Source: Lachnospiraceae bacterium
Lineage (GTDB): Bacteria > Bacillota > Clostridia > Lachnospirales > Lachnospiraceae
DNA length: 17,540 nucleotides
Assembly (NCBI GenBank): GCA_900753685.1
Contig: CAAEAB010000024.1
Coordinates: forward strand, 1-17,540
Direction of reading: 5' to 3'
Each line of letters begins with the position of its first letter. The first letter of the stretch is position 1. Shown piece after piece: positions 115 through 14,927 of this stretch. The notes beneath the pieces are model-generated. The model was not told where the DNA came from, made no database searches, and saw only the letters and a program-made list of their open reading frames with translations. The translations under genes and the position numbers were made by a program.

Positions 115-144
115 GAATACAAATGCAATATGGAGGAAAATGCT

Positions 145-1902
145 ATGAAAAGAAAAAAACTTTTATCGTTGTTTCTTGGACTTTGCATGGTATTCGGTGT
201 GCTGCTGCTTCCGGCTCAGGAAGCGGCGGCTGTAAATGCCAGTGAAGTTAACCAGGATGTGGTGGATGCATGTAACGGTATCCTGGAAGTGACTCAGGTG
301 ATCACGGTGGACGGTAATACAATTGCTTATTCACGTGGTACAGGCTTCCTTATCGGAACCGATGAGAATGCACAGAACGTTATTACGAATCATCACGTTG
401 TCAATGCCTTTCCGTATGAAGAAAAGGCATTAAAACAAATGATTCAGGAAGCCGGATTAACATTGGCTTCTGATGCAAAGGTCAAGTCAGAGATTCGGAT
501 CGTGGTTAAGAGAGATGTTTATCTTACAGCAGAAATCGTAAATCAGAGTGAGGCTGGTGATTTCTGTATTCTGAAAATGGAGCAGCCGATCTACGACAGA
601 GAACCGTTGACTCTGGGAGACAGCAGTAATGTCGTTACGACACAGCAGATTTATGCGCTTGGTTTCCCAGCCGCTGTCGAAGGAGCATGGGGACAGAATA
701 TTGGCGAGAGCCTTCAGTTGGATGCTATTTATACAGCAGAGGATGTAACAGTAACAAGTGGTACAGTATCTAAAGTTGGTAATTTTATTGGTACAGGGGC
801 TCCGATTTCTACAATCGTTCATTCAGCGACAATTTCTGGTGGGAATTCCGGCGGACCGTTGGTTACAGCCGATGGTGTAGTTATGGGTATCAATACATAT
901 GAACTGTCCCAGGAGACTGGTTATTATTATTCAACAGAAATTAATGAAGTTACAGATGTTTTATCAGCTCTTGGAATTGCTTATAAATCGACAAATGCTG
1001 TTTCAGAACCGGCTTCAACAGGAACAGAATCTGTGGAAAGCGCTGCTCCGGAAACAGAAGCGGAAACGATTGCTGTAGATAACGAAAAACTTGATGAGCT
1101 TGAGGAAGCTATAAACAATGCCGGAAGTATTGCTCTTGAAAACATGACAGCTGAAAGCGCTGCAAATTTCAATACAGCTTTAAAAGAGGCAAAAGCCGTG
1201 CTTAATAGCAGCGGACCGTCGGATGCTGAGATTGATGAAGCGATCAATAATTTGAAAACAGCTCAGGATGGTCTTGTAGAGGAAAAGGGTTCCAATACGA
1301 TGATGATCGTTATTGTTGCGGCGGCTGCAGTCATTATCATTATTATTATCGTTGTTGTAGTGACGTCTTCCGGAAAGAAGAAAAAGCAGCAGGAAGAAGC
1401 CGAGAAGGCGGCAGCAATGCAGAGACAGCAGCAACAGCAGAGAAATCAGTCTCAGGCCAATTCACAGCAGTGGCAGTCTCAGGCCAAGCCGCAATCTCAA
1501 TCCTTTACACATCAGCCAACACCAACACCAGTAAATGATGGCGCAGGCGAGACGAGTGTGCTGAATGATGGCGCGGGTGAGACAACTGTACTGGGAAATA
1601 ATATTCCGGGCGCTGTTTTGATCCGTAAGAAGAATAATGAACGGATCACAATTACCAAAGCTGTATTTAAGATTGGTAAAGAACGCAGAAAAGTTGATTA
1701 TTGCATTTCTGACAATACGAATATCAGCCGTTCACATGCAGATGTAGTTTTTAAAGATGGCCAATTCTTTATTATCGACAATAATGCAACAAACGGTACA
1801 AGCATCAATGGTACATCCGTACCGGCTGGTCAGGAAAGAAAGCTGAACAACAATGATGTGATCAAGATGGCTGATGAAGAGTTCCAGTTTAAAATGTTAT
1901 AA
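145..1902 (+). CDS. Membrane-anchored trypsin/HtrA-like serine protease with cytoplasmic FHA domain
   Basis: A 585-residue protein. I chose the ATG at 145 because GGAGG at 132-136 lies 8 bp upstream; the in-frame ATG at 130 would overlap that site. Order of parts: signal peptide (1-30); trypsin-like domain (about 40-280) with a full triad in HtrA-type motifs, His84 in TNHHVV, Asp139 in AGDFCILK and Ser235 in SGGNSGGPL; FIVAR-like helical segment (about 312-378); a helix of almost pure Ala/Ile/Val (386-406); a KKKK stop-transfer; a Gln-rich linker (426-452); two 10-residue repeats with ETSVL/ETTVL (464-483); and an FHA domain (about 490-585) with Gly511, Arg529, Ser530, His532 and Asn550-Gly551. 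The topology puts the protease outside and the FHA inside. No PDZ domain is visible. Genes for a phosphatase and a kinase follow directly, so the FHA probably reads phosphothreonine made by that kinase. The fusion is certain from the sequence; the signalling direction is inferred. Confidence 0.92.
   Translation: MKRKKLLSLFLGLCMVFGVLLLPAQEAAAVNASEVNQDVVDACNGILEVTQVITVDGNTIAYSRGTGFLIGTDENAQNVITNHHVVNAFPYEEKALKQMIQEAGLTLASDAKVKSEIRIVVKRDVYLTAEIVNQSEAGDFCILKMEQPIYDREPLTLGDSSNVVTTQQIYALGFPAAVEGAWGQNIGESLQLDAIYTAEDVTVTSGTVSKVGNFIGTGAPISTIVHSATISGGNSGGPLVTADGVVMGINTYELSQETGYYYSTEINEVTDVLSALGIAYKSTNAVSEPASTGTESVESAAPETEAETIAVDNEKLDELEEAINNAGSIALENMTAESAANFNTALKEAKAVLNSSGPSDAEIDEAINNLKTAQDGLVEEKGSNTMMIVIVAAAAVIIIIIIVVVVTSSGKKKKQQEEAEKAAAMQRQQQQQRNQSQANSQQWQSQAKPQSQSFTHQPTPTPVNDGAGETSVLNDGAGETTVLGNNIPGAVLIRKKNNERITITKAVFKIGKERRKVDYCISDNTNISRSHADVVFKDGQFFIIDNNATNGTSINGTSVPAGQERKLNNNDVIKMADEEFQFKML
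1534..1593 (+). repeat. Tandem 30-bp repeat coding NDGAGET(S/T)VL x2
   Basis: Two adjacent 30-bp units (1534-1563 and 1564-1593) encode NDGAGETSVL and NDGAGETTVL, residues 464-483 of the protease-FHA protein. They end about six residues before the FHA fold. Most base differences are at third positions, so the peptide appears to be under selection. The ETxV core resembles the phosphorylated ETTSV motif next to the FHA domain in actinobacterial GarA and OdhI. Confidence 0.85.
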
Positions 1903-1919
1903 GACAGGCAGGGGATCCT

Positions 1920-2696
1920 ATGGATTTTATGATTGCGTCCCACAGTGACGTAGGAATAAAAAAGAATACAAATCAGGATTCACTGCTTGTAAAAGTGGCG
2001 CAGACAAACCTTGGAAGGGTTTGTCTGTGCGTCGTATGTGACGGGATGGGCGGACTGGCCAAAGGAGAACTGGCCAGCGCCACAGTTATCCGCACTTTTG
2101 AAAACTGGTTTGAAAACGATTTTCCCGCCATGCTTGAGCGGGGGTTTGACCCGGACGAGTTAAGATTACAATGGGATAATATTGTTCTGGAACAGAATCA
2201 AAAAATCTCGGCCTATGCGTCAAGCCAGGGCACCCGGATGGGAACGACGATCACGACGATCCTCATTATCGGAGGCCAGTATTATATTATGAATGTCGGT
2301 GATTCCAGAGCGTATATGCTGACGGACCAATTATATCTCCTCACGAAGGACCAGACCGTTGTCCAGTATCAGCTGGATATGGGGATGATCACATTGGAGG
2401 AAGCCCTTGTACATCCGCAGAGGAATGTACTGCTTCAATGTGTTGGCGCTTCAGAGGTGGTCACGCCGGATTTTTACAGCGCTCCGGTAGTTCCGGATAC
2501 GATGTTCGTTCTGTGCAGCGATGGCTTTCGTCATGTCATTACACCGGAAGAGATTTATGACAACCTGAATCCGGGGCTTCTTGCGGATGAGCAGAGGATG
2601 AAGGAAAATGCCGTATGGCTTACGGAGCTTGATAAACAGCGGCAGGAAGTGGACAACATTTCTGTCGTTTTGATTCGGACATGTCAGGGAGGTTAA
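1920..2696 (+). CDS. PP2C-family protein Ser/Thr phosphatase
   Basis: A 258-residue cytoplasmic protein of typical length for bacterial PP2C (PrpC/Stp/PstP) enzymes, which use two metal ions to remove phosphate from Ser/Thr. Metal-binding and family motifs appear in the right order: NQDS (Asp20), VCDGMGG (Asp41), GTTITT (108-113), NVGDSRAYML (Asp128), CSDGF (Asp201) and DNISVVL (Asp245). No signal peptide or membrane helix is seen. The start has AGGGG at 1910-1914. It lies 17 bp after the protease-FHA gene and 3 bp before the kinase gene, so it is very likely the eraser for that kinase. The prpC-prkC order is the same as in the usual Firmicute pair, but the locus is different. I give no gene symbol because this looks like an accessory copy rather than the housekeeping prpC. 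Confidence 0.95.
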   Translation: MDFMIASHSDVGIKKNTNQDSLLVKVAQTNLGRVCLCVVCDGMGGLAKGELASATVIRTFENWFENDFPAMLERGFDPDELRLQWDNIVLEQNQKISAYASSQGTRMGTTITTILIIGGQYYIMNVGDSRAYMLTDQLYLLTKDQTVVQYQLDMGMITLEEALVHPQRNVLLQCVGASEVVTPDFYSAPVVPDTMFVLCSDGFRHVITPEEIYDNLNPGLLADEQRMKENAVWLTELDKQRQEVDNISVVLIRTCQGG

Positions 2697-2699
2697 GCG

Positions 2700-4511
2700 A
2701 TGCTGCAGATTGGTTCAGTAGTAGACGGTAAGTATAAAGTGCTTAATAAAATCGGTCAGGGCGGTATGAGCGTCGTTTATCTTGCTTTGAATGAACGGGC
2801 AAACAAAACCTGGGCGATCAAAGAAGTGCGAAAGGACGGCGTTCAGGATTTTGCCACGGTCAAGCAGGGGCTTATAGCCGAGACAAATATTCTGAAAAGT
2901 CTGAGTCACAAATATTTGCCGAGTATCGTAGACGTTATTGATGATAAAGATACCTTTATCATCGTTATGGATTATATTCAGGGAAAATCCCTGAAAGAGC
3001 TTCTTAAAGAAAGTATGGAATATGAGGGCTTTCCGATGGCGGTGGAAGACGTTATTTCATGGGGAAAGCAATTGTGCGAGGTTCTTTACTATCTACACAC
3101 ACGGGAGCAGCCGATCATCTATCGTGATATGAAACCATCCAACGTTATGATCAAACCGGATGGAGAAATATCTCTGATCGACTTTGGTACAGCCAGGGTG
3201 TTTAAAACGGGAAATACGGAAGATACTATCTGTCTTGGAACGCCGGGTTATGCTGCGCCGGAGCAGTATGGGGGCAATGGGCAGACAAGGCCCCAGACGG
3301 ATATTTACTGTCTGGGAGCAACGCTCCATCATCTGATCACCGGACGGGACCCGGCGCCGACGCCGTTTAACTTCCCGCTGATCACCCAGTGCCGTCCGAC
3401 GCTGCTGGATGAGACGCCGAGGGAGCTTCGTAATGCGGTCCTTGGACTGGAAATGGTCATTGAAAAATGTACTCAATATGAAATTAAGGATCGGTATCAA
3501 TCCTGCGCCGAGCTTAAATATGACCTGGAGCATCTGGAAGAGCTGGGACTGCCTTACCGAAAAAAGCTTAAACATAAGATGATAGCCTTTGGAGGCTGTC
3601 TCTTAATGGCGGCAGTTCTGGGCGGCGTTTCTCTTTTCGGAATGATCATGGAGAACCGTACGAAGACGAGCGGCTATGATTACTATATTGAAGCGGCTAA
3701 GACGGCATCTTCAAGTAATAAGCTGGAATTGTACCAAAAGGCTATTGAGCTGAATCCAACCAGTGAAACAGCTTATCTGGAAATGTTGGAAGAGATGATC
3801 GCCACAGAGGGCTTCACAACTGAAGACGATGCGCTGATGACTTCTGTACTTTATTCCAAATACAATGGCAGGGATAAGGATAATAAAACTTATTTTCAGG
3901 CGAATCGCAGCGGCTATGTTTATTTTGCCTATGAATTGGGATGCGCTTATTATACGGCCGGCGACGGCAGCGGTGATAAATCTTCGGCGGCCGGATGGTT
4001 CCAGATCGTCAATGAAGCGGATTTAGATTCGATGAATTTTGATATTAATGGCGCATATGTTGATAAAACGCAAATGAAAGCCATGTCAGAGATTCTCGGT
4101 CGAATTTGTGATTACTATAAGAGTAATAGTATTGGAAAAGTAAATGAACTTGGTATGGGTGAATATACTTATGGCGAATATTGGGATGACCTGATGGCCC
4201 TTTTAGATGGCGACGTGGCCGGAGATGCCAACGTTATGCTGGAATTAAAGCTTTATAATGAGATCGTCTATCAGATTTATACCCGGACGATCGAGTTTAA
4301 AACGGAAGCCGGATTAAAGGCCGAAGATTTAAACGAAGCTCTGGATAAGGTTACTGACAAGCTTGACAGAGTAGACTCAAGGTCTAACAGTATACCTCAG
4401 ACGATTATGGAAATCGAAGAGGATATTGCCATGGCGCGGAAAAATATTACAGCGGCCTATGCGTCAAACGCTGTCACAGGAAATTCAACTGGAGGAGGTA
4501 ATGGATCATGA
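2700..4511 (+). CDS. Transmembrane Ser/Thr protein kinase, PrkC-like, TPR-type outer domain, no PASTA
   Basis: A 603-residue protein. The N-terminal kinase domain (about 12-280) has a complete catalytic set: Gly-rich loop GQGGMSVV (19-26), Lys41 in WAIKEV, Glu61, the catalytic loop YRDMKPSN (Asp143, Lys145, Asn148; Tyr replaces the usual His), DFG at 161-163 and APE at 186-188. A membrane helix lies at about 294-316. The C-terminal part (320-603) would be extracellular; it begins with a TPR-like helical pair (about 325-362) and ends in a Gly/Asn/Ser-rich tail. PASTA domains, usual in Firmicute PrkC, are absent, so it should not sense muropeptides in that way. AGGGAGG at 2686-2692 lies inside the end of the phosphatase gene, and the stop overlaps the next start by 4 bp (ATGA). 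Likely targets are the ETSVL/ETTVL motifs in both flanking membrane proteins. This is inference. Confidence 0.94.
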   Translation: MLQIGSVVDGKYKVLNKIGQGGMSVVYLALNERANKTWAIKEVRKDGVQDFATVKQGLIAETNILKSLSHKYLPSIVDVIDDKDTFIIVMDYIQGKSLKELLKESMEYEGFPMAVEDVISWGKQLCEVLYYLHTREQPIIYRDMKPSNVMIKPDGEISLIDFGTARVFKTGNTEDTICLGTPGYAAPEQYGGNGQTRPQTDIYCLGATLHHLITGRDPAPTPFNFPLITQCRPTLLDETPRELRNAVLGLEMVIEKCTQYEIKDRYQSCAELKYDLEHLEELGLPYRKKLKHKMIAFGGCLLMAAVLGGVSLFGMIMENRTKTSGYDYYIEAAKTASSSNKLELYQKAIELNPTSETAYLEMLEEMIATEGFTTEDDALMTSVLYSKYNGRDKDNKTYFQANRSGYVYFAYELGCAYYTAGDGSGDKSSAAGWFQIVNEADLDSMNFDINGAYVDKTQMKAMSEILGRICDYYKSNSIGKVNELGMGEYTYGEYWDDLMALLDGDVAGDANVMLELKLYNEIVYQIYTRTIEFKTEAGLKAEDLNEALDKVTDKLDRVDSRSNSIPQTIMEIEEDIAMARKNITAAYASNAVTGNSTGGGNGS

Positions 4512-5110
4512 GTACTCAGAACTTTGAACAGTTGATGAATATGTATGGCAACATTAAATTCATTTGCGGTATTGCGGCTATTATCTTTTTGCTGCTTGCC
4601 ATTGCCTTATTTTTCCTGTTAAAAATCCCTTCCGTATTCAGTGAACTGACCGGGCGGGGAGCAAAAAAGGCCATTGAAGAAATGATGGCGGAAAATGACA
4701 GCGGCGGCCTGTCGGCTTCAAGAAAAATCGGTGATGACGGACGTAGGCATAAAAAGCGGATCATCGGCACGTCAAGACTTAGGAAGAATACAGGACGTAT
4801 GACCGGCGGCCTGAATACGGGGCGAATGACTGGAAATCTGAAAACAGATTCCATGACTGGGAGTGCGTCCGGGAGACAGGATGCTCCGGTTCAGGAAATG
4901 GTTCAACCGGCGTATACGGAGGAAACGGAACAGCGGATTGAGGAAGTTTCAGCTCTGGATGCAGAGAACAATGAAACCTCTGTGTTGGAGAGCGGAAGCA
5001 GCGAAACCTCTGTTCTGGAAACCGGTATTAATGAGACAACCGTGATGCGGCAGGGATTTATTATTCTGCGCAGCATTGTGGAAATACATACCGACGAGGT
5101 GATAAGCTAA
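4508..5110 (+). CDS. Small membrane protein with three ETSVL/ETTVM putative phosphothreonine motifs
   Basis: A 200-residue protein of unknown family. One membrane helix (about 18-38) follows a short uncharged N-terminus. The following segment is rich in Lys/Arg, so the C-terminal 160 residues should be cytoplasmic. The tail holds three TGRMTG/TDSMTG units (95-118, period 9), then ETSVL (156-160), ETSVL (166-170) and ETTVM (176-180) at an exact period of 10, and ends in a hydrophobic, beta-like segment (183-200). The ET[ST]V[LM] motif and the period of 10 are the same as in the protease-FHA protein. It is translationally coupled to the kinase by the ATGA overlap, with GGAGGAGG at 4491-4498. 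I infer that it is a kinase substrate that docks the FHA domain at the membrane. No enzyme motif is visible. I found no sign that a C-terminal domain was lost by frameshift: the next gene starts 36 bp later. Confidence 0.8.
   Translation: MSTQNFEQLMNMYGNIKFICGIAAIIFLLLAIALFFLLKIPSVFSELTGRGAKKAIEEMMAENDSGGLSASRKIGDDGRRHKKRIIGTSRLRKNTGRMTGGLNTGRMTGNLKTDSMTGSASGRQDAPVQEMVQPAYTEETEQRIEEVSALDAENNETSVLESGSSETSVLETGINETTVMRQGFIILRSIVEIHTDEVIS
4790..4861 (+). repeat. Thr-rich 9-residue repeat (TGRMTG) x3
   Basis: Residues 95-100, 104-109 and 113-118 of the 200-residue membrane protein read TGRMTG, TGRMTG and TDSMTG, a period of 9 residues (27 bp). The stretch is basic and Thr-rich and lies between the membrane helix and the ETSVL motifs. 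It may be a second phosphorylation cluster or a flexible linker. Confidence 0.6.
4973..5047 (+). repeat. ETSVL/ETSVL/ETTVM array, period 10 residues
   Basis: Residues 156-180 contain three copies of ET[ST]V[LM] spaced exactly 10 residues apart, in an acidic, polar context. If the first Thr is phosphorylated, an aliphatic residue (Leu or Met) falls at +3, a position many FHA domains read. The same motif and spacing occur before the FHA domain encoded at 1534-1593. Confidence 0.8.
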
Positions 5111-5146: not shown

Positions 5147-8100
5147 ATGAGAAAAAAGAGGATGCAAAGAGCGCTGGCCTTTTTTCTGGCAGCTCTGCTG
5201 GTCATCGGTTCGGTATTCACCGGAGACGTCTCATCGCTGCAGGCGTATGCAGTGGAGACGACAGGCAACCCGCCGGGAGAACCGATAAATGACCCGAACC
5301 CAGAATTGGCGGAGTTCACATTTAATGTGACTATGCCGGAAAAAACAGCAGATGTCGAATGGGGAGATCCGGTACTTACCATATTTGAGAATGGGAATAC
5401 CATGGCAACAGTAAACCTGACTGAAGACAGGAATATCCTGAACGGAACAGCGAGCATTACGAAGGTCGATAGTGCAGCTTACACATATTCAGTGACTTGC
5501 AATAATTATACGCTGGAGAATAATACAGGGAAGCTGGATTTTGCACAGTCGGCAGTTGTTGTCTCAGGTATTACGGCAAAGCCGTATTATGAGGCTGAGA
5601 TATTAGATAACGGAACACTTACGGTGGAAGATACAGCGACTTACACTTTGTCCGGCATTAACTTAAATGTTTGGGCGAATACGTTGAACTTTACATGGGC
5701 TGTAGAGTCTGGGGACTGTATTCAGATAGAAGGTGTCCATTCGGCTGAAAACTGTACCGTGAAAGCTGTAAAAGCAGGAACAGCAACTGTTCAGGTGACG
5801 GATGGAGATGGCTATGTGGTTGCAAGCCGGAGTATTACTGTAAATAAAAAAGATGTCAGCAGTAATATGAGCGTAACATTTGAACCGACAGGGGCTTCAG
5901 TGAATGATGCGGTAAGTGTGACAGTGTCCGGCGTACCGGCAAATGTCGGAGTCTGGCTGAAAATCAGTGAAGTTGAAAATGAAGATACGACATATATTAA
6001 GACTTCGGATTCAGACGGAAAAGTGGAATTTTCATGGACTCCAGTTGATGGTAATGCTCATACGTTATCTGCTGAAATAAATAGTGATTCTTATACCGGA
6101 ACAGTGACAGCTTCATATACGGCAAATAAGCTGGCTCAATCCTTTACGATTAAAGAAGTTGAGGACGTCGATGTTACCTATGGCGACGAAGCAAGAGTGA
6201 TAGCGTCCATTACCAATGGTGGCGGTATTCAAAATGATTCTAATGATTACAGCTATTTTGCCAAAGTTTATGCTGCAGATGCAGATGATGCAAAAACGGA
6301 AGAATTGTCTCAGGCAGCAGAGGTTTCTGTGGATGAGTCCACTGGAGAAATCAGTCTGACGCCGAAGGCGGCCGGCAAGGTTTATGTGGAAATCACAAAA
6401 GCCGGAAATGATGTTTATGCCGATTGTTCCAAGGGCTTTGTTTATGAAATTCTTCCGAAGGAGCTGACGATTGAAAGCGTAAAAGCAGTTGACCGGGTAT
6501 ACGATAGAACGACTTTCGTGGATGTTAGTGCGACAGTGGAAGGTATTGTTGATGCGGATAAAGGTGATGTGTCCGATACCATCAGCGGAACCGGAGAGAT
6601 GGCCGATGCCAATGCCGGAGAGAATAAGGAAGTTATATCCACGACGATTAAGCTCCCTGAAAACGGATATGAAAATTATATATTAAAAGAGGGCGATATC
6701 GCTAACATTGAGAATGTAGACACCACTGTATCCATTACCAAAAAGCCTTTATTGGTGACAATAGAGGATGGAACGAGGGTATTCCGTGAGGAAAATGAAC
6801 AGGTCGTTCAGACAGTGACTGAAAAAATGACATTTAAAGGTTTTGTTGACGGTGAGGATAAAGCGGTTCTTAAAAACAGCACAAAGCCATCGGTTTCTAT
6901 CAGTGTAGAACCTACAAAAGGTATTATCGGTGTTAATAAAAATGCCATTGAGGCAAATTTGGCTGGAGCAAATGATGATGAAAATGCGCCAGTCAACTAT
7001 GTGTATGCTTCTTCCGTGACAGATGATACAACTTATGAGACGACACCGGCTGTCAGTGATTTGACGATTACGGCAGAAACGGTGGACAGTTTTACAAAAT
7101 ACGTAGCGGTTGGCGGCACAAATGTTTATCAGGAAACAGATGATAATGCGGTTGGAACTGAGACTGTATATTACGGTTACAGCGCTGAGGCGACGTTTAG
7201 CATCAATGATGGTACCGGCGTATATACAAAACTGCGGGAGGTAACTGATGTGGTTGGCGGCGTAGAAAGCGGAAATGTTGGAACGGATGTAACAGCGGAC
7301 GGCGTGACATTATCGGGTGCAATGGAAGAAGAAATTAATCTTACCAATGTCACAAAGACTTTCTATCTGACCAATGGGGACGGAACGATATATTCGAAAC
7401 CGTTTGATATTACATTTACCGTGGATACAGCTGTACCGCAGGTGGAATTGTCCATGGAGGACGGAACACCGACAGTAAATAAGCTGGCAGAGACGATTAC
7501 ATTTGGTGTCTTCAAAAATGAGCAGACGGCGGTAAGCGTAACAGTAACAGATTCGGAAACAAGTGCGGTTTCAGGCATTAAAAACTGGCAGTATGCTATT
7601 TATAATTGTAGTGAAGGAACGGGCAAAAGCTATGAAGACTACAAAGATAGTTTGATATTCGAAGATGCGTCTCGGAACGGTATTGTCCAGATACCGGTAG
7701 CTGTTTCAGAAATGCCGGGGAAATATATTTTATTTGTTAAAGCGACGGATAACGTGGGCAATCAGATAATTTATGCCAGCAATGGCATGATTTTTGAGTG
7801 TTCGGTTATCGAGACCATTGATATTTATCATGGCGAGGGCGTTCGGAGCTATAATTATGTAAATAGTAATCAGACAGTGACGATTACGGCGACGGACGAG
7901 GACGAAAGCAATATTTATTCCGGTGTAGCAAAAATTGATTATGCTGTCAGCATTGACGGAAAAACGACGGAATATTCTTATCTGACAACGGAAGAGGGAA
8001 AAATTCCGGATGTGGCAGATTTAAGCGTATATAAGGAAGCTACGGTGGTTGATGGAAATAATCAGAAGCCGATAGTCAGTGTGGATGACAATACCAGCGC

Positions 8101-11100
8101 GGTTATTAAAATTACGGCGACAGCAACGGACTTTGCCGGAAATGAAATAACATCCGCAAACGCTTACAGTCATGCTTTTGTTATTGATAAACTGGCTCCG
8201 GTGATTGCCAACAGCGTAACATCCGCAGCTGCTGTACAAAACAGCAAATATTATAATAAAGACGTCGTTCTGACAACGACGATTACAGAGCGGTTTTTAG
8301 ATATTAACAATGCTCTCAAATATACAATTAACGGCGAAACGGTGTCATTGGCAGAATTGAAAGCACGGCAGGCGGATTTTGGTATCAGCAGTATCGTTGT
8401 TGACGAAGGCGCCGCTGAGGCAAATCGCACGGATAGCTCAAAATCAGTAGTGACGATTACCTTCCATGAGGACAATGTATATACGGTGAAGGTGTCTGTG
8501 ACAGATAAGGCCGGAAATTCAGATGTGAAATCAGTTTCCGAATTTGTCATCGACCAGACAGCGCCGGTAGTTAATATTACATATTACAGCTTTGGCAGCG
8601 GAAAAGAATTTAAAGCCGGTACAAATGCTTCGGCTCCGGCTTATCTGAATGGAGACTACAGTTCCTTTAAAGCTGTTGTTTCTGTGGACGAATTGAATTT
8701 TGCCGCTGAGGACGACACAGTCATTTCTACATTGACAATGACAGCGAAGGATTCTGCTAATATAGATATTCTGGCAGATTTTATAGCGGGCCATCAGACG
8801 GCTTCGGCAAAGGCTTCTTCCTGGAGTCAGGCGTCAGGAAATACGAAGAATTATGAAATTGCCGTACAGACAGACGCAAATTACAGTTTTGCCTTTGAGT
8901 ATACGGATTTGGCCGGAAATAAAGCTTCTGTGAATGTGGGCTATGTAACTCTGGACAGAGTGGTTCCGTCGGGAAGCATTACGGCAGACGGACTTGTCAA
9001 TGACACGGCGGTGACAAAGACCTGGTTTGAGTCTTTCCTCAGCACGATTACCTTCGGTTTATTCGGAAAGAATGATATGGGGGCGACGATGGAAAGCTCC
9101 GATATAACTTCCGGCGTGGCGTCCACCTGGTATCTGGCAACTTCCGAGCTGCTCACCAAAACAGACCTGGCAAAACGGACAGACTGGACCGCTTACACGG
9201 GAAGAATTTCTTTGACTGCTAACCAGAATGTGATCGTTTATGAAAAGGTTATCGATAAAGCAGGAAATATCAGTTATTTCAGTACAGAAAATCTTGTGGC
9301 GGATAATATCGATCCGGCGCCGACAGTCACCATCACACCGACGACGCCGGGATGGGGCAAAGGCGTTTACAGCGCGGGTGATGCTCCGGGATTTGATGTT
9401 TCGGTGACAGACCCGTCAACGAATGGGTCATACTCCGGTCTGAAAGAAATTACTTATCAGATTGTTAATGGAACGACGGGTTACGTTCAGTCAGGTACAT
9501 TGGCAAGTATCGCCCGGACGGCCCATCAGCAGAGCTGGACAGGCCACGTATCCATTGACCCGACAGCATTTTATAGTAACGATGTTCAGATTACCGTATC
9601 GGCTGCTGACTGGTCAACAAATCCGGCGACTTCGGAAACACAGCGGTTGAAGGTGGATAATGAAGCGCCTGTCGTATCATTCAGCTTTGATAAGTCGGAT
9701 GCTTCAAATGGAAAATATTATAATACGACAAAAGTATTAACGATTACTGTCAATGAACGTAACTTTGATGAGTCTTATCAGCCGACAGTAACGGCCAGCA
9801 ACGGCAGCGGTTACAGCTTCAGCGGCTGGTCCATTAACGGCGAAGTGGCTACAGGTACGATAACATTCAGCGGCGACGGCGACTATTCCGTAACCTATGA
9901 TTGTTATGATCTGGCGGGCAATAAGTCCAATACGGAAACATTGGAAGAAATTACGATTGATAAGACAAATCCTGTGATTTCTGTATCTTATGATAACAAT
10001 AATGCCCGCAACGGCAATTATTATAATGCTTCACGAACAGCGACGATTACCATTACGGAGCATAACTTTAATGCGGCCAACGTATCGGTACAGACGACCG
10101 CCAGCGGCGCTTCCGCACCGGGCGTGAGCGGATGGTCTACCAGCGGCGACCGTCATACGGCAACGGTAACCTTCGGCAGCGATGCAGATTATACCTTTGA
10201 TATCAGCTACACAGATTTGGCCGGAAATGCGGCTGCGGACTATGCGCAAGACAGCTTCACCGTCGACCTGACAAATCCGGAGGTCGAGATTACCGGCGTA
10301 GCAAATAAATCGGCCAACAAGGGCACGGTAGAACCGGTGATTACCCTGTCTGATACAAATTATGATACTCAGGGTATTACGATTACACTCGTCGGAAGCA
10401 ATAGGGGACGGGTCGATATTTCCAATATGATTACGACCATGACAACAGCGAACGGTCAGACAATCACATTCCTGAATTTCGGTGAAGGCATGGATGATAT
10501 TTATACGCTGACTGCGGAAGCAGTGGATAAGGCTGGAAATGAAACGACAACGAGTATTACCTTCTCTGTCAACCGTGACGGTTCCACTTATATTATCAAT
10601 AGTTCAACGCAGGAACTGCTGAAAAAGGGTTACACAAATAATCCGAAGGATATTGTAATTCAGGAAATTAACGTTGATACGCTGAAGTTCATTGAATTGA
10701 CTTATTCGAAGGACGGCAAGGTTGTCAAGCTGGTTGAGGGCAAGGATTACACGGTGACGGTCAGCCAGACCGAAGGCCAGTGGAAGATGTATACCTATAC
10801 TATTAAGGCATCCTGCTTTGAGGACGAAGGTCAGTATGTCATCAATATTTATTCTGAAGACGAAGCAGAAAACGCAACGACCAATAAGGCGAAGCAGACA
10901 AGTATAGAGTTCGTTGTAGATAAAACGCCTCCAACGATCGTCATTTCCAATCTGGAAGATGGCGAACGTTATAAAGAAGACAGTCATGAATTTACATTGA
11001 GCGTCAAGGATAACACATCTCTGGCTTATGTGGAATATTATCTGGACGGCGAGCTTGTCAGGGTTTATGAAGATGATGAACTTCTTGCGGAGGACGGCGT

Positions 11101-11344
11101 GATCAAGATTGATCTCGGAAGCGCAGGAACCTATCAGAACGTACAGATTAAAGCCTATGACGCGGCAGGCAATGAAATGGTTTCTGAGGAATACAGCGTA
11201 CTGGTAACGTCCAGCGCATGGATTCAGTTCTATATGAACAAGCCGTTGTTCTATGGCGTTATCATTGTCATTCTTCTGGCTATGGCGTTGATTATCTTCT
11301 TTATCGGAAAACGGAGAAAAGATGACGACAGGAAAAAAGCATAA
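5147..11344 (+). CDS. Giant multidomain Ig-like surface protein, C-terminally membrane-anchored
   Basis: A 2065-residue secreted protein. GAGGG at 5133-5137 lies 9 bp before the ATG. Signal peptide at 1-35, with cleavage likely near AYAVE. The N-terminal third holds a Big_2-like domain (about 150-233), an MBG-like module (about 335-440) and a YDG-type module (about 441-533, with DRVYDRTT). From about residue 759 there is a series of Ig-like units of 100-130 residues, most opening with D-x-x-x-P: 759, 1014, 1136, 1270, 1386, 1504, 1605, 1707 and 1925. Two units carry TITFG(V/L)F (783, 1300). Three carry a YYN followed by a TI-x-E-R/H-x-F type strand. A membrane helix (about 2035-2053) and the basic tail GKRRKDDDRKKA anchor it; no LPxTG motif precedes the helix, so sortase anchoring is unlikely. 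No catalytic domain was recognised. The likely role is adhesion or a long stalk. It follows the phospho-signalling genes by 36 bp with no promoter seen, so it is probably co-transcribed and may be a substrate of the protease. Confidence 0.9.
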   Translation: MRKKRMQRALAFFLAALLVIGSVFTGDVSSLQAYAVETTGNPPGEPINDPNPELAEFTFNVTMPEKTADVEWGDPVLTIFENGNTMATVNLTEDRNILNGTASITKVDSAAYTYSVTCNNYTLENNTGKLDFAQSAVVVSGITAKPYYEAEILDNGTLTVEDTATYTLSGINLNVWANTLNFTWAVESGDCIQIEGVHSAENCTVKAVKAGTATVQVTDGDGYVVASRSITVNKKDVSSNMSVTFEPTGASVNDAVSVTVSGVPANVGVWLKISEVENEDTTYIKTSDSDGKVEFSWTPVDGNAHTLSAEINSDSYTGTVTASYTANKLAQSFTIKEVEDVDVTYGDEARVIASITNGGGIQNDSNDYSYFAKVYAADADDAKTEELSQAAEVSVDESTGEISLTPKAAGKVYVEITKAGNDVYADCSKGFVYEILPKELTIESVKAVDRVYDRTTFVDVSATVEGIVDADKGDVSDTISGTGEMADANAGENKEVISTTIKLPENGYENYILKEGDIANIENVDTTVSITKKPLLVTIEDGTRVFREENEQVVQTVTEKMTFKGFVDGEDKAVLKNSTKPSVSISVEPTKGIIGVNKNAIEANLAGANDDENAPVNYVYASSVTDDTTYETTPAVSDLTITAETVDSFTKYVAVGGTNVYQETDDNAVGTETVYYGYSAEATFSINDGTGVYTKLREVTDVVGGVESGNVGTDVTADGVTLSGAMEEEINLTNVTKTFYLTNGDGTIYSKPFDITFTVDTAVPQVELSMEDGTPTVNKLAETITFGVFKNEQTAVSVTVTDSETSAVSGIKNWQYAIYNCSEGTGKSYEDYKDSLIFEDASRNGIVQIPVAVSEMPGKYILFVKATDNVGNQIIYASNGMIFECSVIETIDIYHGEGVRSYNYVNSNQTVTITATDEDESNIYSGVAKIDYAVSIDGKTTEYSYLTTEEGKIPDVADLSVYKEATVVDGNNQKPIVSVDDNTSAVIKITATATDFAGNEITSANAYSHAFVIDKLAPVIANSVTSAAAVQNSKYYNKDVVLTTTITERFLDINNALKYTINGETVSLAELKARQADFGISSIVVDEGAAEANRTDSSKSVVTITFHEDNVYTVKVSVTDKAGNSDVKSVSEFVIDQTAPVVNITYYSFGSGKEFKAGTNASAPAYLNGDYSSFKAVVSVDELNFAAEDDTVISTLTMTAKDSANIDILADFIAGHQTASAKASSWSQASGNTKNYEIAVQTDANYSFAFEYTDLAGNKASVNVGYVTLDRVVPSGSITADGLVNDTAVTKTWFESFLSTITFGLFGKNDMGATMESSDITSGVASTWYLATSELLTKTDLAKRTDWTAYTGRISLTANQNVIVYEKVIDKAGNISYFSTENLVADNIDPAPTVTITPTTPGWGKGVYSAGDAPGFDVSVTDPSTNGSYSGLKEITYQIVNGTTGYVQSGTLASIARTAHQQSWTGHVSIDPTAFYSNDVQITVSAADWSTNPATSETQRLKVDNEAPVVSFSFDKSDASNGKYYNTTKVLTITVNERNFDESYQPTVTASNGSGYSFSGWSINGEVATGTITFSGDGDYSVTYDCYDLAGNKSNTETLEEITIDKTNPVISVSYDNNNARNGNYYNASRTATITITEHNFNAANVSVQTTASGASAPGVSGWSTSGDRHTATVTFGSDADYTFDISYTDLAGNAAADYAQDSFTVDLTNPEVEITGVANKSANKGTVEPVITLSDTNYDTQGITITLVGSNRGRVDISNMITTMTTANGQTITFLNFGEGMDDIYTLTAEAVDKAGNETTTSITFSVNRDGSTYIINSSTQELLKKGYTNNPKDIVIQEINVDTLKFIELTYSKDGKVVKLVEGKDYTVTVSQTEGQWKMYTYTIKASCFEDEGQYVINIYSEDEAENATTNKAKQTSIEFVVDKTPPTIVISNLEDGERYKEDSHEFTLSVKDNTSLAYVEYYLDGELVRVYEDDELLAEDGVIKIDLGSAGTYQNVQIKAYDAAGNEMVSEEYSVLVTSSAWIQFYMNKPLFYGVIIVILLAMALIIFFIGKRRKDDDRKKA
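7421..11200 (+). repeat. Diverged tandem Ig-like units with D-x-x-x-P starts
   Basis: Nine D-x-x-x-P unit starts (DTAVP, DKLAP, DQTAP, DRVVP, DNIDP, DNEAP, DKTNP, DLTNP, DKTPP) occur at gaps of 255, 122, 134, 116, 118, 101, 102 and 218 residues. The two long gaps probably hide one more diverged unit each. The units starting at residues 1504 and 1605 are the most alike. Similarity is at protein level only; no long exact DNA repeats were seen. Confidence 0.7.
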
Positions 11345-11435: not shown

Positions 11436-13421
11436 ATGCAAAGCGGCGATTTGATTCAAAATATGTATCGGATATTAAGGCCTTTGGGGAGCGGCGGCAT
11501 CGGCAATATTTATCTGGCCTGGCATGAAAATCTCCGAAAGTATATTATTGTCAAAAGAATTAAAGAACATTGTGTCAATCTGGTAAACTGTCGGAGCGAG
11601 GCGGATATTTTAAAAGAGCTTCATCATATGTATTTGCCCCAGGTTTATGATTTTGTGCAGATTGGTACAGATGTTTTTACAGTGATGGATTACATTCCCG
11701 GACATGACTTAAAATATTATCTGGATAGGGGACAGCAGTTTGATGAGAAACAGATTCTGATTTGGCTCAATCAGTTGCTGGAAGTGCTTGAATATTTGCA
11801 TACCCGGTCGCCGAAGATTATTCATTGCGATATAAAGCCGGCCAATATTATGATTACGGAGGAAGGCAATGTCTGCCTTATTGATTTTAATATATCTCTG
11901 GATGGTGAAAATAATAAAGAGCTTGTGGGCCTGAGTAACCAATTTGCTTCCCCGGAACAGGTTAAAAAGGCAGATTGCAAGCTGCGATATGGCAGCAGTG
12001 AAGGAGTTCCCATCGATGAACGCACCGATTTATATAGTCTCGGAGCGGTCATGTATTATATGATGACAGGGATTATGCCGAACGCCCGGAGAATCGATTT
12101 TATACCGATAGGCATGGTGGGAAACGATGTGAATTCTTACAGCGACGGACTGACTAATATTGTGGATAAGGCCATGCAGGAAAATCCGGACAGGCGTTTT
12201 AAAAGCGCGTCGAAAATGCGGGAAGCAGTTGTTCATATTGAAAAATGGGGAAATGATTACAGGAAGCTGACCCGTATCGGTATCGGTCTTGATGCGGCGG
12301 CCTTTATGATGGCGCTTGTTCTTATCTGTACGATGATTATCGGTTATGGCCGGATGAAAACGGATGAATTTTTTAAAGCTTACGAAGCGTATATGTCTGA
12401 GGTTCGGACGCTCTATGATGCGGAAATGGCGGCCGACGGGGACGAAGTTACGGAGAGAGAAAACGCGCGGCAGATTCTCAGCGACGGAATTTCATTTTTA
12501 AATACGGGTACATATCAAAAAAGATTTGAAAACTATGAAGAAGCCAGGTCCAACGTACTTTACGGTGTAGCACAGGCCTCCATGTATCTTGGAAATTATA
12601 ATCAGGCATTGTCCTATCTGGAAGAGGCGTTGATGTACAATCCTGAGAATGTTTCGATAAATAGAGATTTGATGATTGTCGGAATCCGGTGCGGTGAAAA
12701 AGATAGTGTATCGGCGAACGAACTTCTGACAGAAATGGACACCAGCGAGATGTATCTTATTGAAGCAGAAGCCGCTTACGCTTCGGGGGATTTTGAGCAG
12801 GCTTATGAAAAAGCTGTTCTGGCGGCGGACAGCGCCGTGGATTCTGACGGAGAAAACCGTCAGGAAATGATACAGCGGAGCGCCCTGCTTGCCGCGGACA
12901 GTGCCGGAAGATGCGGAAAAGTTCTCGAATGTATGGATTTTGCTGTGAAAATGGCCGAAGTATCCGGACGGTTCGACCGGATTTTCTGGCTTCGTAAGGC
13001 AGGAGAACTTTCTGTCCGGGCGCTGGACTCCGGCGAGGCGGACAGAAACCGGACGGAGCAGGGCATTTCTGCTTATGAAATGGTGAGAGAAAGCGGCTAT
13101 GCCCAGCTGACAGATTTGCTCAATCTGGCGGCTCTGTATGAAGCGGACGGACAACTTATCAACTGTAGCTCTCTTCTGACCGAGATGTATGAGGATGCGC
13201 CGGATGAGTATGAGATACCTCTGAGACTGTCGTCGATTTACTATCAGATAGAAAATAATAAAACGCCGACAAAACGGGATTATGCCCAGACAGTATACTA
13301 TTTTGACGCGGCACGCAAAATCTGTGAAACCAGAGGAATTGACTGGGCGTTTGACTCGGCAATGGTTCAGATGAGTGATATTGTGGCCCAGTTGAGAGAA
13401 AAAGGTCTGGTGAGAGAGTAG
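11436..13421 (+). CDS. Transmembrane Ser/Thr kinase with HCD and DFN motifs and TPR-rich outer region
   Basis: A 661-residue protein; GGGAGG at 11425-11430 precedes the ATG by 5 bp. The kinase domain (about 10-275) keeps Gly-loop GSGGIGNI (18-25), Lys40 in VKRI, Glu55, Asp132, Lys134 and Asn137 in HCDIKPAN, Asp150 and the SPE motif (172-174). Two positions depart from the norm: Cys131 replaces Arg of HRD, and Asn152 replaces Gly of DFG. All three residues for ATP and metal handling are present, so it is probably active, but activation-loop control should differ. A membrane helix spans about 282-304. The outer part (305-661) is helical with TPR-like units, clearest at about 378-411 and 440-473. 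It has the same overall plan as the kinase encoded at 2700-4511 but is quite diverged. No phosphatase gene lies beside it. It begins a short run with the 39-residue gene and the TPR-LRR gene. Confidence 0.92.
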   Translation: MQSGDLIQNMYRILRPLGSGGIGNIYLAWHENLRKYIIVKRIKEHCVNLVNCRSEADILKELHHMYLPQVYDFVQIGTDVFTVMDYIPGHDLKYYLDRGQQFDEKQILIWLNQLLEVLEYLHTRSPKIIHCDIKPANIMITEEGNVCLIDFNISLDGENNKELVGLSNQFASPEQVKKADCKLRYGSSEGVPIDERTDLYSLGAVMYYMMTGIMPNARRIDFIPIGMVGNDVNSYSDGLTNIVDKAMQENPDRRFKSASKMREAVVHIEKWGNDYRKLTRIGIGLDAAAFMMALVLICTMIIGYGRMKTDEFFKAYEAYMSEVRTLYDAEMAADGDEVTERENARQILSDGISFLNTGTYQKRFENYEEARSNVLYGVAQASMYLGNYNQALSYLEEALMYNPENVSINRDLMIVGIRCGEKDSVSANELLTEMDTSEMYLIEAEAAYASGDFEQAYEKAVLAADSAVDSDGENRQEMIQRSALLAADSAGRCGKVLECMDFAVKMAEVSGRFDRIFWLRKAGELSVRALDSGEADRNRTEQGISAYEMVRESGYAQLTDLLNLAALYEADGQLINCSSLLTEMYEDAPDEYEIPLRLSSIYYQIENNKTPTKRDYAQTVYYFDAARKICETRGIDWAFDSAMVQMSDIVAQLREKGLVRE

Positions 13422-13577: not shown

Positions 13578-14927
13578 GTGGAAAAAGATAAGAAAAATAA
13601 AATTGTTTTCGGAATAGCGGCAGTGCTTATTGCGGCTATTGTGGCGGCTGCGGCGTTTCTTGTCAGCGGACAGCTAAAGGAGCAAAGATATTATGAGCAG
13701 TTGAAAACTGCTCAGGCTTTCATGACAAATCTTGATTATGACAGCGGTATCGAAGCTTATAAGGCGGCCATTGACATTAATCCGTCGGCCGCCGAGGCTT
13801 ATATTGAGCTGGCCGAGGTTTATATTGAATTGGGGGATTACAGCGAAGCCTCTTATATGGCGGAGCTTGGAAGCCTGAAATCCGGCAGCTCTTCCTTTGC
13901 GGCTTTGATGGAAAAGCTGGATGAAATTCGTGACAGAGGCGAGGTGGTCAATGTCGGCGAAAACGGTACGCAAGGAGAAGATTTGGATGATATTGTAATT
14001 AATGATAATGTTTCTTTACGGTATGGCACTATTGAAAATGTGGCGGATTTCTGTTATCAGCAATATGTGAATGAATATGGTTCGGCGACAATGAGCAAAG
14101 CTTCAGATGAAGAAGGCTATCAGGCAAAATTTCAGGGGTTTGGCGGTTATGCTTATTTTAAAAATACTTCGGAGTATAAAAATGTAATTAATGAGTCGAC
14201 ACGGCAGCCGGCAAAATCCGCAAAACCGTACAAGGTTGTTATCACATCAACGTCACTGCTGTTCGTAGGCTACAATGGTCCTGTCAGCAGCGCAAGATTG
14301 CAGCAGATGTTTAATACAAGCTTAACACCGGTTTATGACGAGACTCAGAACGCCTATTTTGCGGAGTTTGAATATATGGGTTGTCGTATTCGTCTGAAAG
14401 TGGACGAAAAAGGCAATATGGGAGCAGAGTCTCTGATTGAGCTGTATCCATTGAACCTGGTGAAAGAAGATTGGGAGGAAGAAGAAACAGAGGAAACAGA
14501 AGAAGAAGTTGAGACGTTTACGCTCGGAAGTCATACTTATACCTATGACGTTACGTCGATTGTTATTTCCGGGGAAAATATCGGTGATTTGTCGCCGTTA
14601 TTTGATTGCAAGAATCTACGGGAACTTGTATTGGAAAATTGCAGCATTGACAGTTTGGAACCTTTAGCCGGGTGTTTGGCTTTGGAAGTGCTGGATTTAC
14701 GGCGGTCGACGGGATTTTCGGATTTATCGCCGTTAAGTGGTTTATTAAATCTGCGTTATCTGGACCTTCACGGATGTTCCGGAGTCAGCGATATTTCGCC
14801 GATTATGAATCTGAATTTGAAATTGCTCCATACATGTGATACGGGAGTGACCCGGGAACAGACACAGGCTTATAAGGATGCTCATCCGGATTGTGAAGTG
14901 TGGTATGCCAGCCGTACCCTTTCATAG
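13578..14927 (+). CDS. Membrane-anchored TPR and leucine-rich-repeat protein
   Basis: A 449-residue protein starting at GTG 13578, with GGAGGGG at 13566-13572; the ATG at 13576 opens only a short frame. A signal-anchor helix (about 9-30) follows a Lys-rich N-terminus, so the bulk is extracellular. Residues 38-100 form TPR-like pairs, including the NLDYDSGIEAYKAAI and YIELGDYSEA helices. Residues 145-290 are an uncharacterised alpha/beta region, 298-312 an acidic Glu-rich linker, and 325-425 four to five LRR-like units (LRELVLENC, LEVLDLRRS, LRYLDLHGC). LRRs are binding modules, so a ligand or protein-contact role is likely. TPRs also occur in the outer parts of both kinases, which suggests that this protein associates with them on the outer face. 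No catalytic motif is visible. Confidence 0.88.
   Translation: MEKDKKNKIVFGIAAVLIAAIVAAAAFLVSGQLKEQRYYEQLKTAQAFMTNLDYDSGIEAYKAAIDINPSAAEAYIELAEVYIELGDYSEASYMAELGSLKSGSSSFAALMEKLDEIRDRGEVVNVGENGTQGEDLDDIVINDNVSLRYGTIENVADFCYQQYVNEYGSATMSKASDEEGYQAKFQGFGGYAYFKNTSEYKNVINESTRQPAKSAKPYKVVITSTSLLFVGYNGPVSSARLQQMFNTSLTPVYDETQNAYFAEFEYMGCRIRLKVDEKGNMGAESLIELYPLNLVKEDWEEEETEETEEEVETFTLGSHTYTYDVTSIVISGENIGDLSPLFDCKNLRELVLENCSIDSLEPLAGCLALEVLDLRRSTGFSDLSPLSGLLNLRYLDLHGCSGVSDISPIMNLNLKLLHTCDTGVTREQTQAYKDAHPDCEVWYASRTLS

What the first reader, a model, noticed from the sequence alone, without database searches (positions are those of the whole stretch)
1534..5047. A shared ET[ST]V[LM] motif at a 10-residue period links the FHA protein and the small membrane protein
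The FHA protein has ETSVL and ETTVL (residues 469-473 and 479-483). The 200-residue protein, two genes downstream, has ETSVL, ETSVL and ETTVM (156-180). All five are spaced by exactly 10 residues within each protein, and both predicted sites face the cytoplasm. A kinase and a phosphatase gene lie between them. GarA and OdhI use an ETTSV motif phosphorylated by Ser/Thr kinases and read by an FHA domain. This looks like a complete writer, eraser, reader and docking-site set.
Basis: partly seen in the sequence, partly recalled or inferred. Interest (0 to 1): 0.85.

Follow-up and report, generated by a model that had tools for sequence, protein, structure and literature searches.

The report
Shared phospho-docking motif in kinase operon
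Two membrane proteins made from one bacterial kinase operon carry the same short repeated threonine motif, conserved in relatives, which is most likely a phosphate-controlled tag that lets the proteins dock onto one another.

Summary
ETSVL/ETTVL lie just before the FHA domain of a membrane protease, and ETSVL/ETSVL/ETTVM in the tail of a 200-residue membrane protein, each at a 10-residue period, with PP2C and kinase genes between. Relatives narrow the core to T-x-[VIL]-L. In 65 aligned FHA proteins the two Thr are kept in 65 and 64 and the two Leu in 65 and 65, inside a hypervariable linker. At 55 loci from Lachnospiraceae genomes T-x-[VIL]-[LM] is enriched 27-fold in FHA linkers and 14-fold in small-protein tails, against 0.3 to 1.4-fold elsewhere. 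The invariant Thr takes the register of the phosphothreonine bound by the FHA domains of DgcB (pTSIV), OdhI and GarA (TSVF). Best reading: a kinase/PP2C-controlled, FHA-read, multivalent docking code joining a membrane protease and a small scaffold, often beside a giant surface protein; a new variant of the GarA/OdhI/DgcB self-ligand and Rv1747 clustering theme. Phosphorylation and binding are inferred, not shown. Against: 20 of 55 loci have no adjacent FHA gene, and at 11 of the other 35 the motif is missing from one or both proteins.

The parts
130..1902 (+). Reader: membrane protein with extracytoplasmic trypsin-like protease domain, FIVAR, one TM helix, disordered cytoplasmic linker and C-terminal FHA domain (585 aa from ATG at 145)
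   Evidence: Pfam Trypsin_2, FIVAR, FHA; AF2 model; H84, D139 and S235 invariant in the 65-row alignment
1549..1563 (+). ETSVL, first docking motif (Thr470 of the 585-aa form)
   Evidence: sequence; Thr 65/65 and Leu+3 65/65
1579..1593 (+). ETTVL, second docking motif (Thr480)
   Evidence: Thr 64/65 (one Ser) and Leu+3 65/65; pLDDT under 50 over residues 463-484
1612..1899 (+). FHA domain; predicted phosphothreonine pocket K512, S528, R529, T549, N550
1920..2696 (+). Eraser (candidate): PP2C-type phosphatase
   Evidence: Pfam PP2C_2 and PP2C; upstream of the kinase at 49 of 55 loci
2700..4511 (+). Writer (candidate): membrane Ser/Thr kinase with extracytoplasmic part
   Evidence: Pfam Pkinase E 2.8e-45; directly upstream of the small gene at 54 of 55 loci
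4508..5110 (+). Small single-pass membrane protein (200 aa) with motif-bearing tail and conserved C-terminus; proposed docking scaffold
   Evidence: 77 relatives, alignment A1; no Pfam match at E 0.01
4973..4987 (+). ETSVL, small-protein motif 1
5003..5017 (+). ETSVL, small-protein motif 2
5033..5047 (+). ETTVM, small-protein motif 3
   Evidence: T177 is 90% or more conserved in A1
5147..11344 (+). Giant Ig-like surface protein with C-terminal TM anchor; frequent neighbour and possible client
   Evidence: Pfam Big_3_3, YDG, Big_13; a next ORF over 700 aa follows the small gene at 41 of the 50 loci with a downstream ORF, no chance control made

Best explanation
The five ET[ST]V[LM] copies are instances of a conserved phosphothreonine ligand motif, T-x-[VIL]-L, read by the FHA domain encoded in the same operon. 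The operon kinase phosphorylates the invariant Thr in the disordered linker of the FHA protease and in the tail of the small membrane protein. FHA domains then bind pT-x-V-L with Leu in the +3 pocket, either on a neighbouring FHA protein or on the small scaffold, and PP2C reverses it. Because many of these proteins carry several copies (2 and 3 here, up to 10 in relatives), the result is a reversible multivalent membrane assembly that gathers the protease, the scaffold and possibly the neighbouring giant surface protein. Shown: motif, conservation, enrichment, gene linkage, FHA fold and pocket residues. Inferred: phosphorylation, binding, clustering, client.
For: Thr and Leu+3 nearly invariant in a hypervariable linker. 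Enrichment over shuffle 27x in FHA linkers and 14.4x in small tails, against 1.3x kinase, 1.1x PP2C, 1.4x rest of the FHA protein, 0.3x FHA domain, 0.8x other ORFs. Same register as DgcB LEKpTSIV and OdhI/GarA TTSVF, with the +3 residue in the FHA pocket. Best sequence match among solved structures is the DgcB FHA, E 2.4e-6; DgcB, GarA and OdhI are among the top fold matches, though other FHA domains such as MDC1 score about as high. DgcB contacts R61, R76, T96, N97 map to K512 (K or R in 65/65), R529 (65/65), T549 (63/65), N550 (65/65). Kinase 54/55, PP2C 49/55 and FHA 35/55 adjacent. Motif region predicted disordered. The share of V at +2 in the small and FHA proteins correlates over 23 loci, r=0.64, permutation p=0.003, kinship not removed.
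Against: No phosphosite or binding datum. At 20 of 55 loci no FHA gene is adjacent (4 of these have under 1 kb of contig left), though 14 of those 20 small proteins match the pattern, several by a single copy that may be chance. At 7 of 35 loci with an FHA neighbour only the small protein has the motif, at 3 only the FHA protein, at 1 (L037) neither; relaxed ETTAL or ETxPL copies remain in some. Of 64 FHA domains taken from all fetched regions, 25 have no copy in the 50 residues before them. AlphaFold2 does not place the motif with confidence. The usual FHA Arg is Lys (K512), and DgcB K72 is not kept. In one search locus L063 entered with one ETTVL, although its FHA protein has mostly ETTI[LM] copies further up, which weakens the correlation.
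Confidence: 0.72

Rival explanations
1. GarA/OdhI/DgcB-type intramolecular switch: each FHA domain is occupied in cis by its own phosphorylated linker motif, which frees or blocks the FHA face; the small protein is a competing ligand rather than a cluster builder.
For: Motifs lie about 10 and 20 residues before the FHA domain; GarA, OdhI and DgcB use such self-peptides; 118 of 120 listed FHA proteins keep at least two copies.
Against: The proximal Thr480 is only about 10 residues from the first FHA strand, which makes cis reach doubtful (inference, no modelled complex). Small proteins carry up to 10 copies, more than one pocket needs.
Confidence: 0.3
2. The motif is only the kinase's substrate or docking consensus (or a PP2C site), and both proteins are co-substrates without FHA reading of the motif.
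For: Kinase adjacency (54 of 55) is tighter than FHA adjacency (35 of 55), and 14 of 20 loci without an FHA neighbour keep a match.
Against: The motif sits directly before the FHA domain in 27 of 35 adjacent FHA proteins and in some FHA proteins at loci chosen because one search found no small protein in that genome (for example L117, L123, L124, L125). The register matches known FHA ligands.
Confidence: 0.2
3. Low-complexity tandem repeat noise or recent duplication without function.
For: Copy number and period vary between relatives.
Against: Thr and Leu+3 nearly invariant among relatives of 38-83% identity to the window protein; 14-27x enrichment; synonymous codon differences between copies.
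Confidence: 0.02

Closest known systems
GarA (Mycobacterium) and OdhI (Corynebacterium)
   Different: Those are metabolic regulators with one motif. Here the FHA is on a membrane protease, the motif is repeated, and a second operon protein carries the same motif.
DgcB of Bdellovibrio
   Different: One motif, controls a GGDEF enzyme; no partner protein with the motif is mentioned in the two sections read.
Rv1747 ABC transporter of M. tuberculosis
   Same: Membrane protein with FHA domains and a disordered linker; condensation promoted by the kinase PknF and reversed by PstP (review section)
   Different: A transporter, not a protease; no T-x-V-L repeat or small scaffold is mentioned in the section read.

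Membership tests
FHA domain proteins | FHA fold with phosphothreonine pocket | tested here: met
   Pfam FHA E 3.7e-14; fold matches; pocket residues conserved, with Lys for Arg at 512
GarA/OdhI family | small FHA protein with single N-terminal ETTSVF motif | tested here: not met
   585-aa membrane protease with two ETxVL copies
GarA/OdhI family | binds and inhibits 2-oxoglutarate dehydrogenase when unphosphorylated | not testable with these tools
   none
FHA self-ligand (works like GarA/OdhI/DgcB) | Thr with Ser/Thr at +1 and hydrophobic +2 and +3 in a disordered segment next to the FHA | tested here: met
   window protein; +1 is Gly in 12% of FHA-side copies
FHA self-ligand (works like GarA/OdhI/DgcB) | Thr is phosphorylated and bound by the FHA | not testable with these tools
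   AF2 gives no confident docking
Kinase-driven FHA clustering (works like Rv1747) | phosphorylation-dependent clustering or phase separation | not testable with these tools
   multivalency shown only by sequence
Trypsin-like serine protease | catalytic His, Asp, Ser | tested here: met
   H84, D139, S235 invariant in 65 rows; their role as the triad is read from context and Pfam Trypsin_2, not from a structure match

The most novel reading that the evidence does not exclude
A Lachnospiraceae surface system in which a transmembrane kinase and PP2C write and erase a repeated pT-x-[VIL]-L code on a dedicated small membrane scaffold. FHA-bearing proteases assemble on it into reversible membrane clusters around a giant Ig-like surface protein: a phospho-scaffold whose valency is set by repeat number.
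Probability: 0.35. Interest if true: 0.8.

Novelty: new variant of a known kind. Interest (0 to 1): 0.62.

Why it matters
Substrates and outputs of Ser/Thr kinases in gut Clostridia are, as far as I know, largely unknown (recalled, not from a call). This gives concrete, conserved candidate phosphosites, a reader domain and a partner in one operon, with simple tests. It would extend the single FHA self-ligand of GarA, OdhI and DgcB to a repeated code shared by two membrane proteins, suggesting membrane assemblies built by phosphorylation at the cell surface of gut bacteria.

Tried and rejected
Rejected: chance or low-complexity origin. Rejected: the second Thr of ETTVL as the conserved acceptor, because +1 varies (S, T, G on the FHA side; D, S, T, M on the small-protein side) while the first Thr is fixed. 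Phage origin: not supported (four partial hits, 30-41% identity over 19-32% of the protein, in unannotated fecal records).

Led nowhere: the genome-contig scan gave one locus, Catenibacillus scindens L001, from one strict peptide pattern. AlphaFold2 gave no confident placement of the motif in the FHA pocket. Literature: searches (10 of 1,295 listed; 12 of 12; 12 of 419; 1 of 1; 4 listed of 5) showed in their listings no paper on this operon or on ETxVL next to FHA domains; two searches returned none. One search did bring the GarA/OdhI papers by ETTSVF. Only CC0/CC BY/CC BY-SA papers are held, so this is weak evidence of absence.

Selections: A1 holds the window plus 43 of 77 small relatives. 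A2 and A3 hold the window plus 64 of the 120 listed FHA relatives, picked by hand; the 56 left out are largely near-duplicates and include the truncated P0141 and P0174. The correlation used 23 of the 24 loci with matches in both; L058 was left out because its small-protein ORF runs together with the kinase (L058 is counted). In one search only the 60 residues before the FHA domain are counted, so most copies of L063 are not. The 20 FHA regions were chosen by hand from the best FHA or protease hits in genomes without a small-protein match; at two of them (L116, L122) my local search at E 0.01 did find a weak small-protein match, so 55 of 397 is a lower bound.

Results against my reading: no T.[VIL][LM] in the small tail at 10 of 55 loci; none in the FHA linker at 8 of the 35 loci with an FHA neighbour (L070 is a 69-aa fragment and L074 has only 37 residues upstream, so these two cannot be judged). 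Of 64 FHA domains in all regions fetched, 26 have two or more copies in the 50 residues before them, 13 one, 25 none; in the 20 hand-picked regions 10 of 21 have at least one.

Full report
Observation. The window carries, in order: an FHA protein (130-1902; 585 aa from the ATG at 145), a PP2C phosphatase (1920-2696), a Ser/Thr kinase (2700-4511), a 200-aa membrane protein (4508-5110), a giant Ig-like protein (5147-11344), a second kinase with TPR (11436-13421), a TPR/LRR protein (13578-14927), and then ORFs that look like rimP and nusA (names recalled from sequence, not from a call). Shuffling gives a mean of 0.002 and 0.003 copies in the two proteins.

Conservation. A search with the FHA protein gave 708 relatives, of which 120 were listed. 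119 of 120 have T.[VIL][LM] in the 70-residue stretch before the FHA domain and 118 have two or more; the exception, P0174, lacks the FHA domain and ends in the linker. In an alignment of the window protein with 64 of the 120, Thr470 is kept in 65/65, Leu473 65/65, Thr480 64/65 (one Ser), Leu483 65/65, Gly466 and Gly476 65/65, while the linker before them is gapped and variable. Over 258 FHA-side copies +3 is Leu, +2 is V 82%, L 10%, I 8%, +1 is S 52%, T 34%, G 12%, and -1 is E 86%; 127 successive spacings are exactly 10, 8 are 8 and 4 are 11. The small protein has 77 relatives at E up to 1. 72 of 77 have at least one T.[VIL][LM] after residue 45 and 58 at least two; there +1 is mostly D, S, T or M, +3 is L 88% or M 12%, and spacings of 10 (50) and 11 (42) dominate. 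The core is therefore T-x-[VIL]-L, and the first Thr is the invariant residue.

Neighbourhood test. One named locus, Catenibacillus scindens (family Lachnospiraceae), was the centre for a search of 397 genomes of its family; 55 have a small-protein relative. Regions around all 55 were read. The kinase gene is directly upstream at 54 of 55, PP2C upstream of that at 49 of 55, and an FHA gene directly upstream (34) or downstream (2) at 35 of 55. Of those 35, both proteins match T.[VIL][LM] at 24, only the small protein at 7, only the FHA protein at 3, neither at 1. Density per 100 residues and ratio to shuffled sequence: small tail 2.08 (14.4x; 158 copies against 11.0 expected), 60 residues before the FHA 2.34 (27x), kinase 0.16 (1.3x), PP2C 0.19 (1.1x), rest of the FHA protein 0.19 (1.4x), FHA domain 0.03 (0.3x), other ORFs of at least 250 aa 0.11 (0.8x). 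The enrichment is thus confined to two short segments. Among the 10 loci whose small tail does not match the pattern, relaxed copies such as ETTAL or ETxPL can be seen in several (L032, L072, L078, L085). The share of V at +2 in the FHA and small proteins correlates over 23 loci (r=0.64, permutation p=0.003); kinship was not removed and L063 entered with an unrepresentative copy, so this is only indicative. A next ORF over 700 aa follows the small gene at 41 of the 50 loci that have a downstream ORF; many of those printed begin like signal peptides and end with a hydrophobic segment and basic tail, as the window's giant protein does (no chance control).

FHA proteins in genomes without a small-protein match. 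In 20 regions picked by hand, some FHA proteins of other make-up carry the motif before the FHA (L117 GTTVL x2, L121 ETMVL, L123 and L124 ETTVL/ETTLL, L125 KTGLL/ETCLL), and others do not (for example L128, L130, L134, L135); 10 of 21 FHA domains there have at least one copy in the 50 residues before them. Over all regions 39 of 64 have one. At L129 the ORF directly after the kinase is a 182-aa protein that the small-protein profile does not recognise but that has GTDVL, three GTVVL and GTVIL.

Reader domain. The best sequence match among solved structures is the FHA of Bdellovibrio DgcB (6hc1, E 2.4e-6). Nearest folds by Z are EmbR (18.7, rmsd 3.3), DgcB (18.0-18.1, rmsd 1.3), GarA (17.1, rmsd 1.5) and OdhI (17.0, rmsd 1.6), with FhaA and MDC1 at 16.9, so the fold alone does not single out the self-ligand group. 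The DgcB paper (PMC6733907; passages, and sections 9 and 10 read) shows the FHA binding its own tail, LEKpTSIV, with pT14 and the +3 Val in two depressions, and compares this with GarA and OdhI: Glu at -2, Ser at +1, hydrophobic +2 and +3. The motif here, E-T-S-V-L, fits with Thr central, Ser +1, Val +2, Leu +3, though Glu is at -1. In GarA/OdhI terms the invariant Thr matches the second Thr of ETTSVF (OdhI pT15 in the structure; a GarA phosphopeptide with the second Thr marked is listed in PMC4322841, passages), not the first (OdhI Thr14/GarA Thr21, the PknG site; PMC8546545 and PMC9769921, passages). DgcB contacts R61, R76, T96 and N97 correspond to K512, R529, T549 and N550 by the alignment; R529 and N550 are 65/65, T549 63/65, K512 is K or R in 65/65, and S528 is 63/65. 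The pocket is kept, with Lys for Arg at one place.

Architecture. AF2 of the full protein gives confident protease, helical FIVAR region and FHA, a TM helix at 385-408, and pLDDT under 50 over 463-484, the motif segment. A tail-only model also leaves the motif segment at low confidence. H84, D139 and S235 of the protease are invariant. The small protein has one hydrophobic helix followed by basic residues, so its tail should be cytoplasmic (inference).

Mechanism. The kinase writes pThr at T-x-[VIL]-L in both tails, the FHA reads it with Leu at +3, and PP2C erases it. With two sites per FHA protein and three (up to ten in relatives) per small protein, the natural outcome is a reversible multivalent membrane assembly, comparable to Rv1747, where PknF phosphorylation promotes and PstP reverses condensation (review PMC9312465, passages and section 6 read). 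Copies about 10 and 20 residues before the FHA domain would also allow a cis switch for the distal copy; that is the main rival. I put 0.72 on the phospho-dependent FHA-ligand reading and about 0.35 on the full cluster-plus-surface-protein reading. The tie to the giant protein is by gene order only.

Novelty. The ingredients (kinase, PP2C, FHA, pThr self-ligand) are known. The repeated ligand code shared between an FHA protease and a dedicated small membrane protein was not seen in the listings of the paper searches made. I rate it a new variant of a known kind.

Noticed in passing
window 5147-11344: Giant 2065-aa Ig-like (Big_3, YDG) protein follows the small gene; a next ORF over 700 aa does so at 41 of 50 loci with a downstream ORF, so it may be part of the system.
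   Followed up: partly
window 11436-13421: Second kinase has DFN in place of DFG and HCD in place of HRD (sequence); it may be an atypical kinase or pseudokinase.
   Followed up: no
window 5057-5107: Small protein ends in a strongly conserved segment, consensus FVIxRSIVEIHTDEVI, of unknown role; possibly a second binding element.
   Followed up: no
L129:4653-5201 (-): 182-aa ORF directly after the kinase, not recognised by the small-protein profile, carries GTDVL, GTVVL x3, GTVIL: motif kept where overall similarity is not detectable.
   Followed up: partly
L063:12254-13501 (-): FHA protein with seven ETT[IV][LM] copies, six at a 10-residue period and one 12 further on, well before its FHA domain.
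   Followed up: no
L074, L075, L076, L077, L081, L084: Group in which the small protein carries 4-10 T-x-[VI]-L copies (many TDVL) while the adjacent FHA protein shows none in its linker (L074 has little linker held): labour may be divided.
   Followed up: partly
   Followed up: yes
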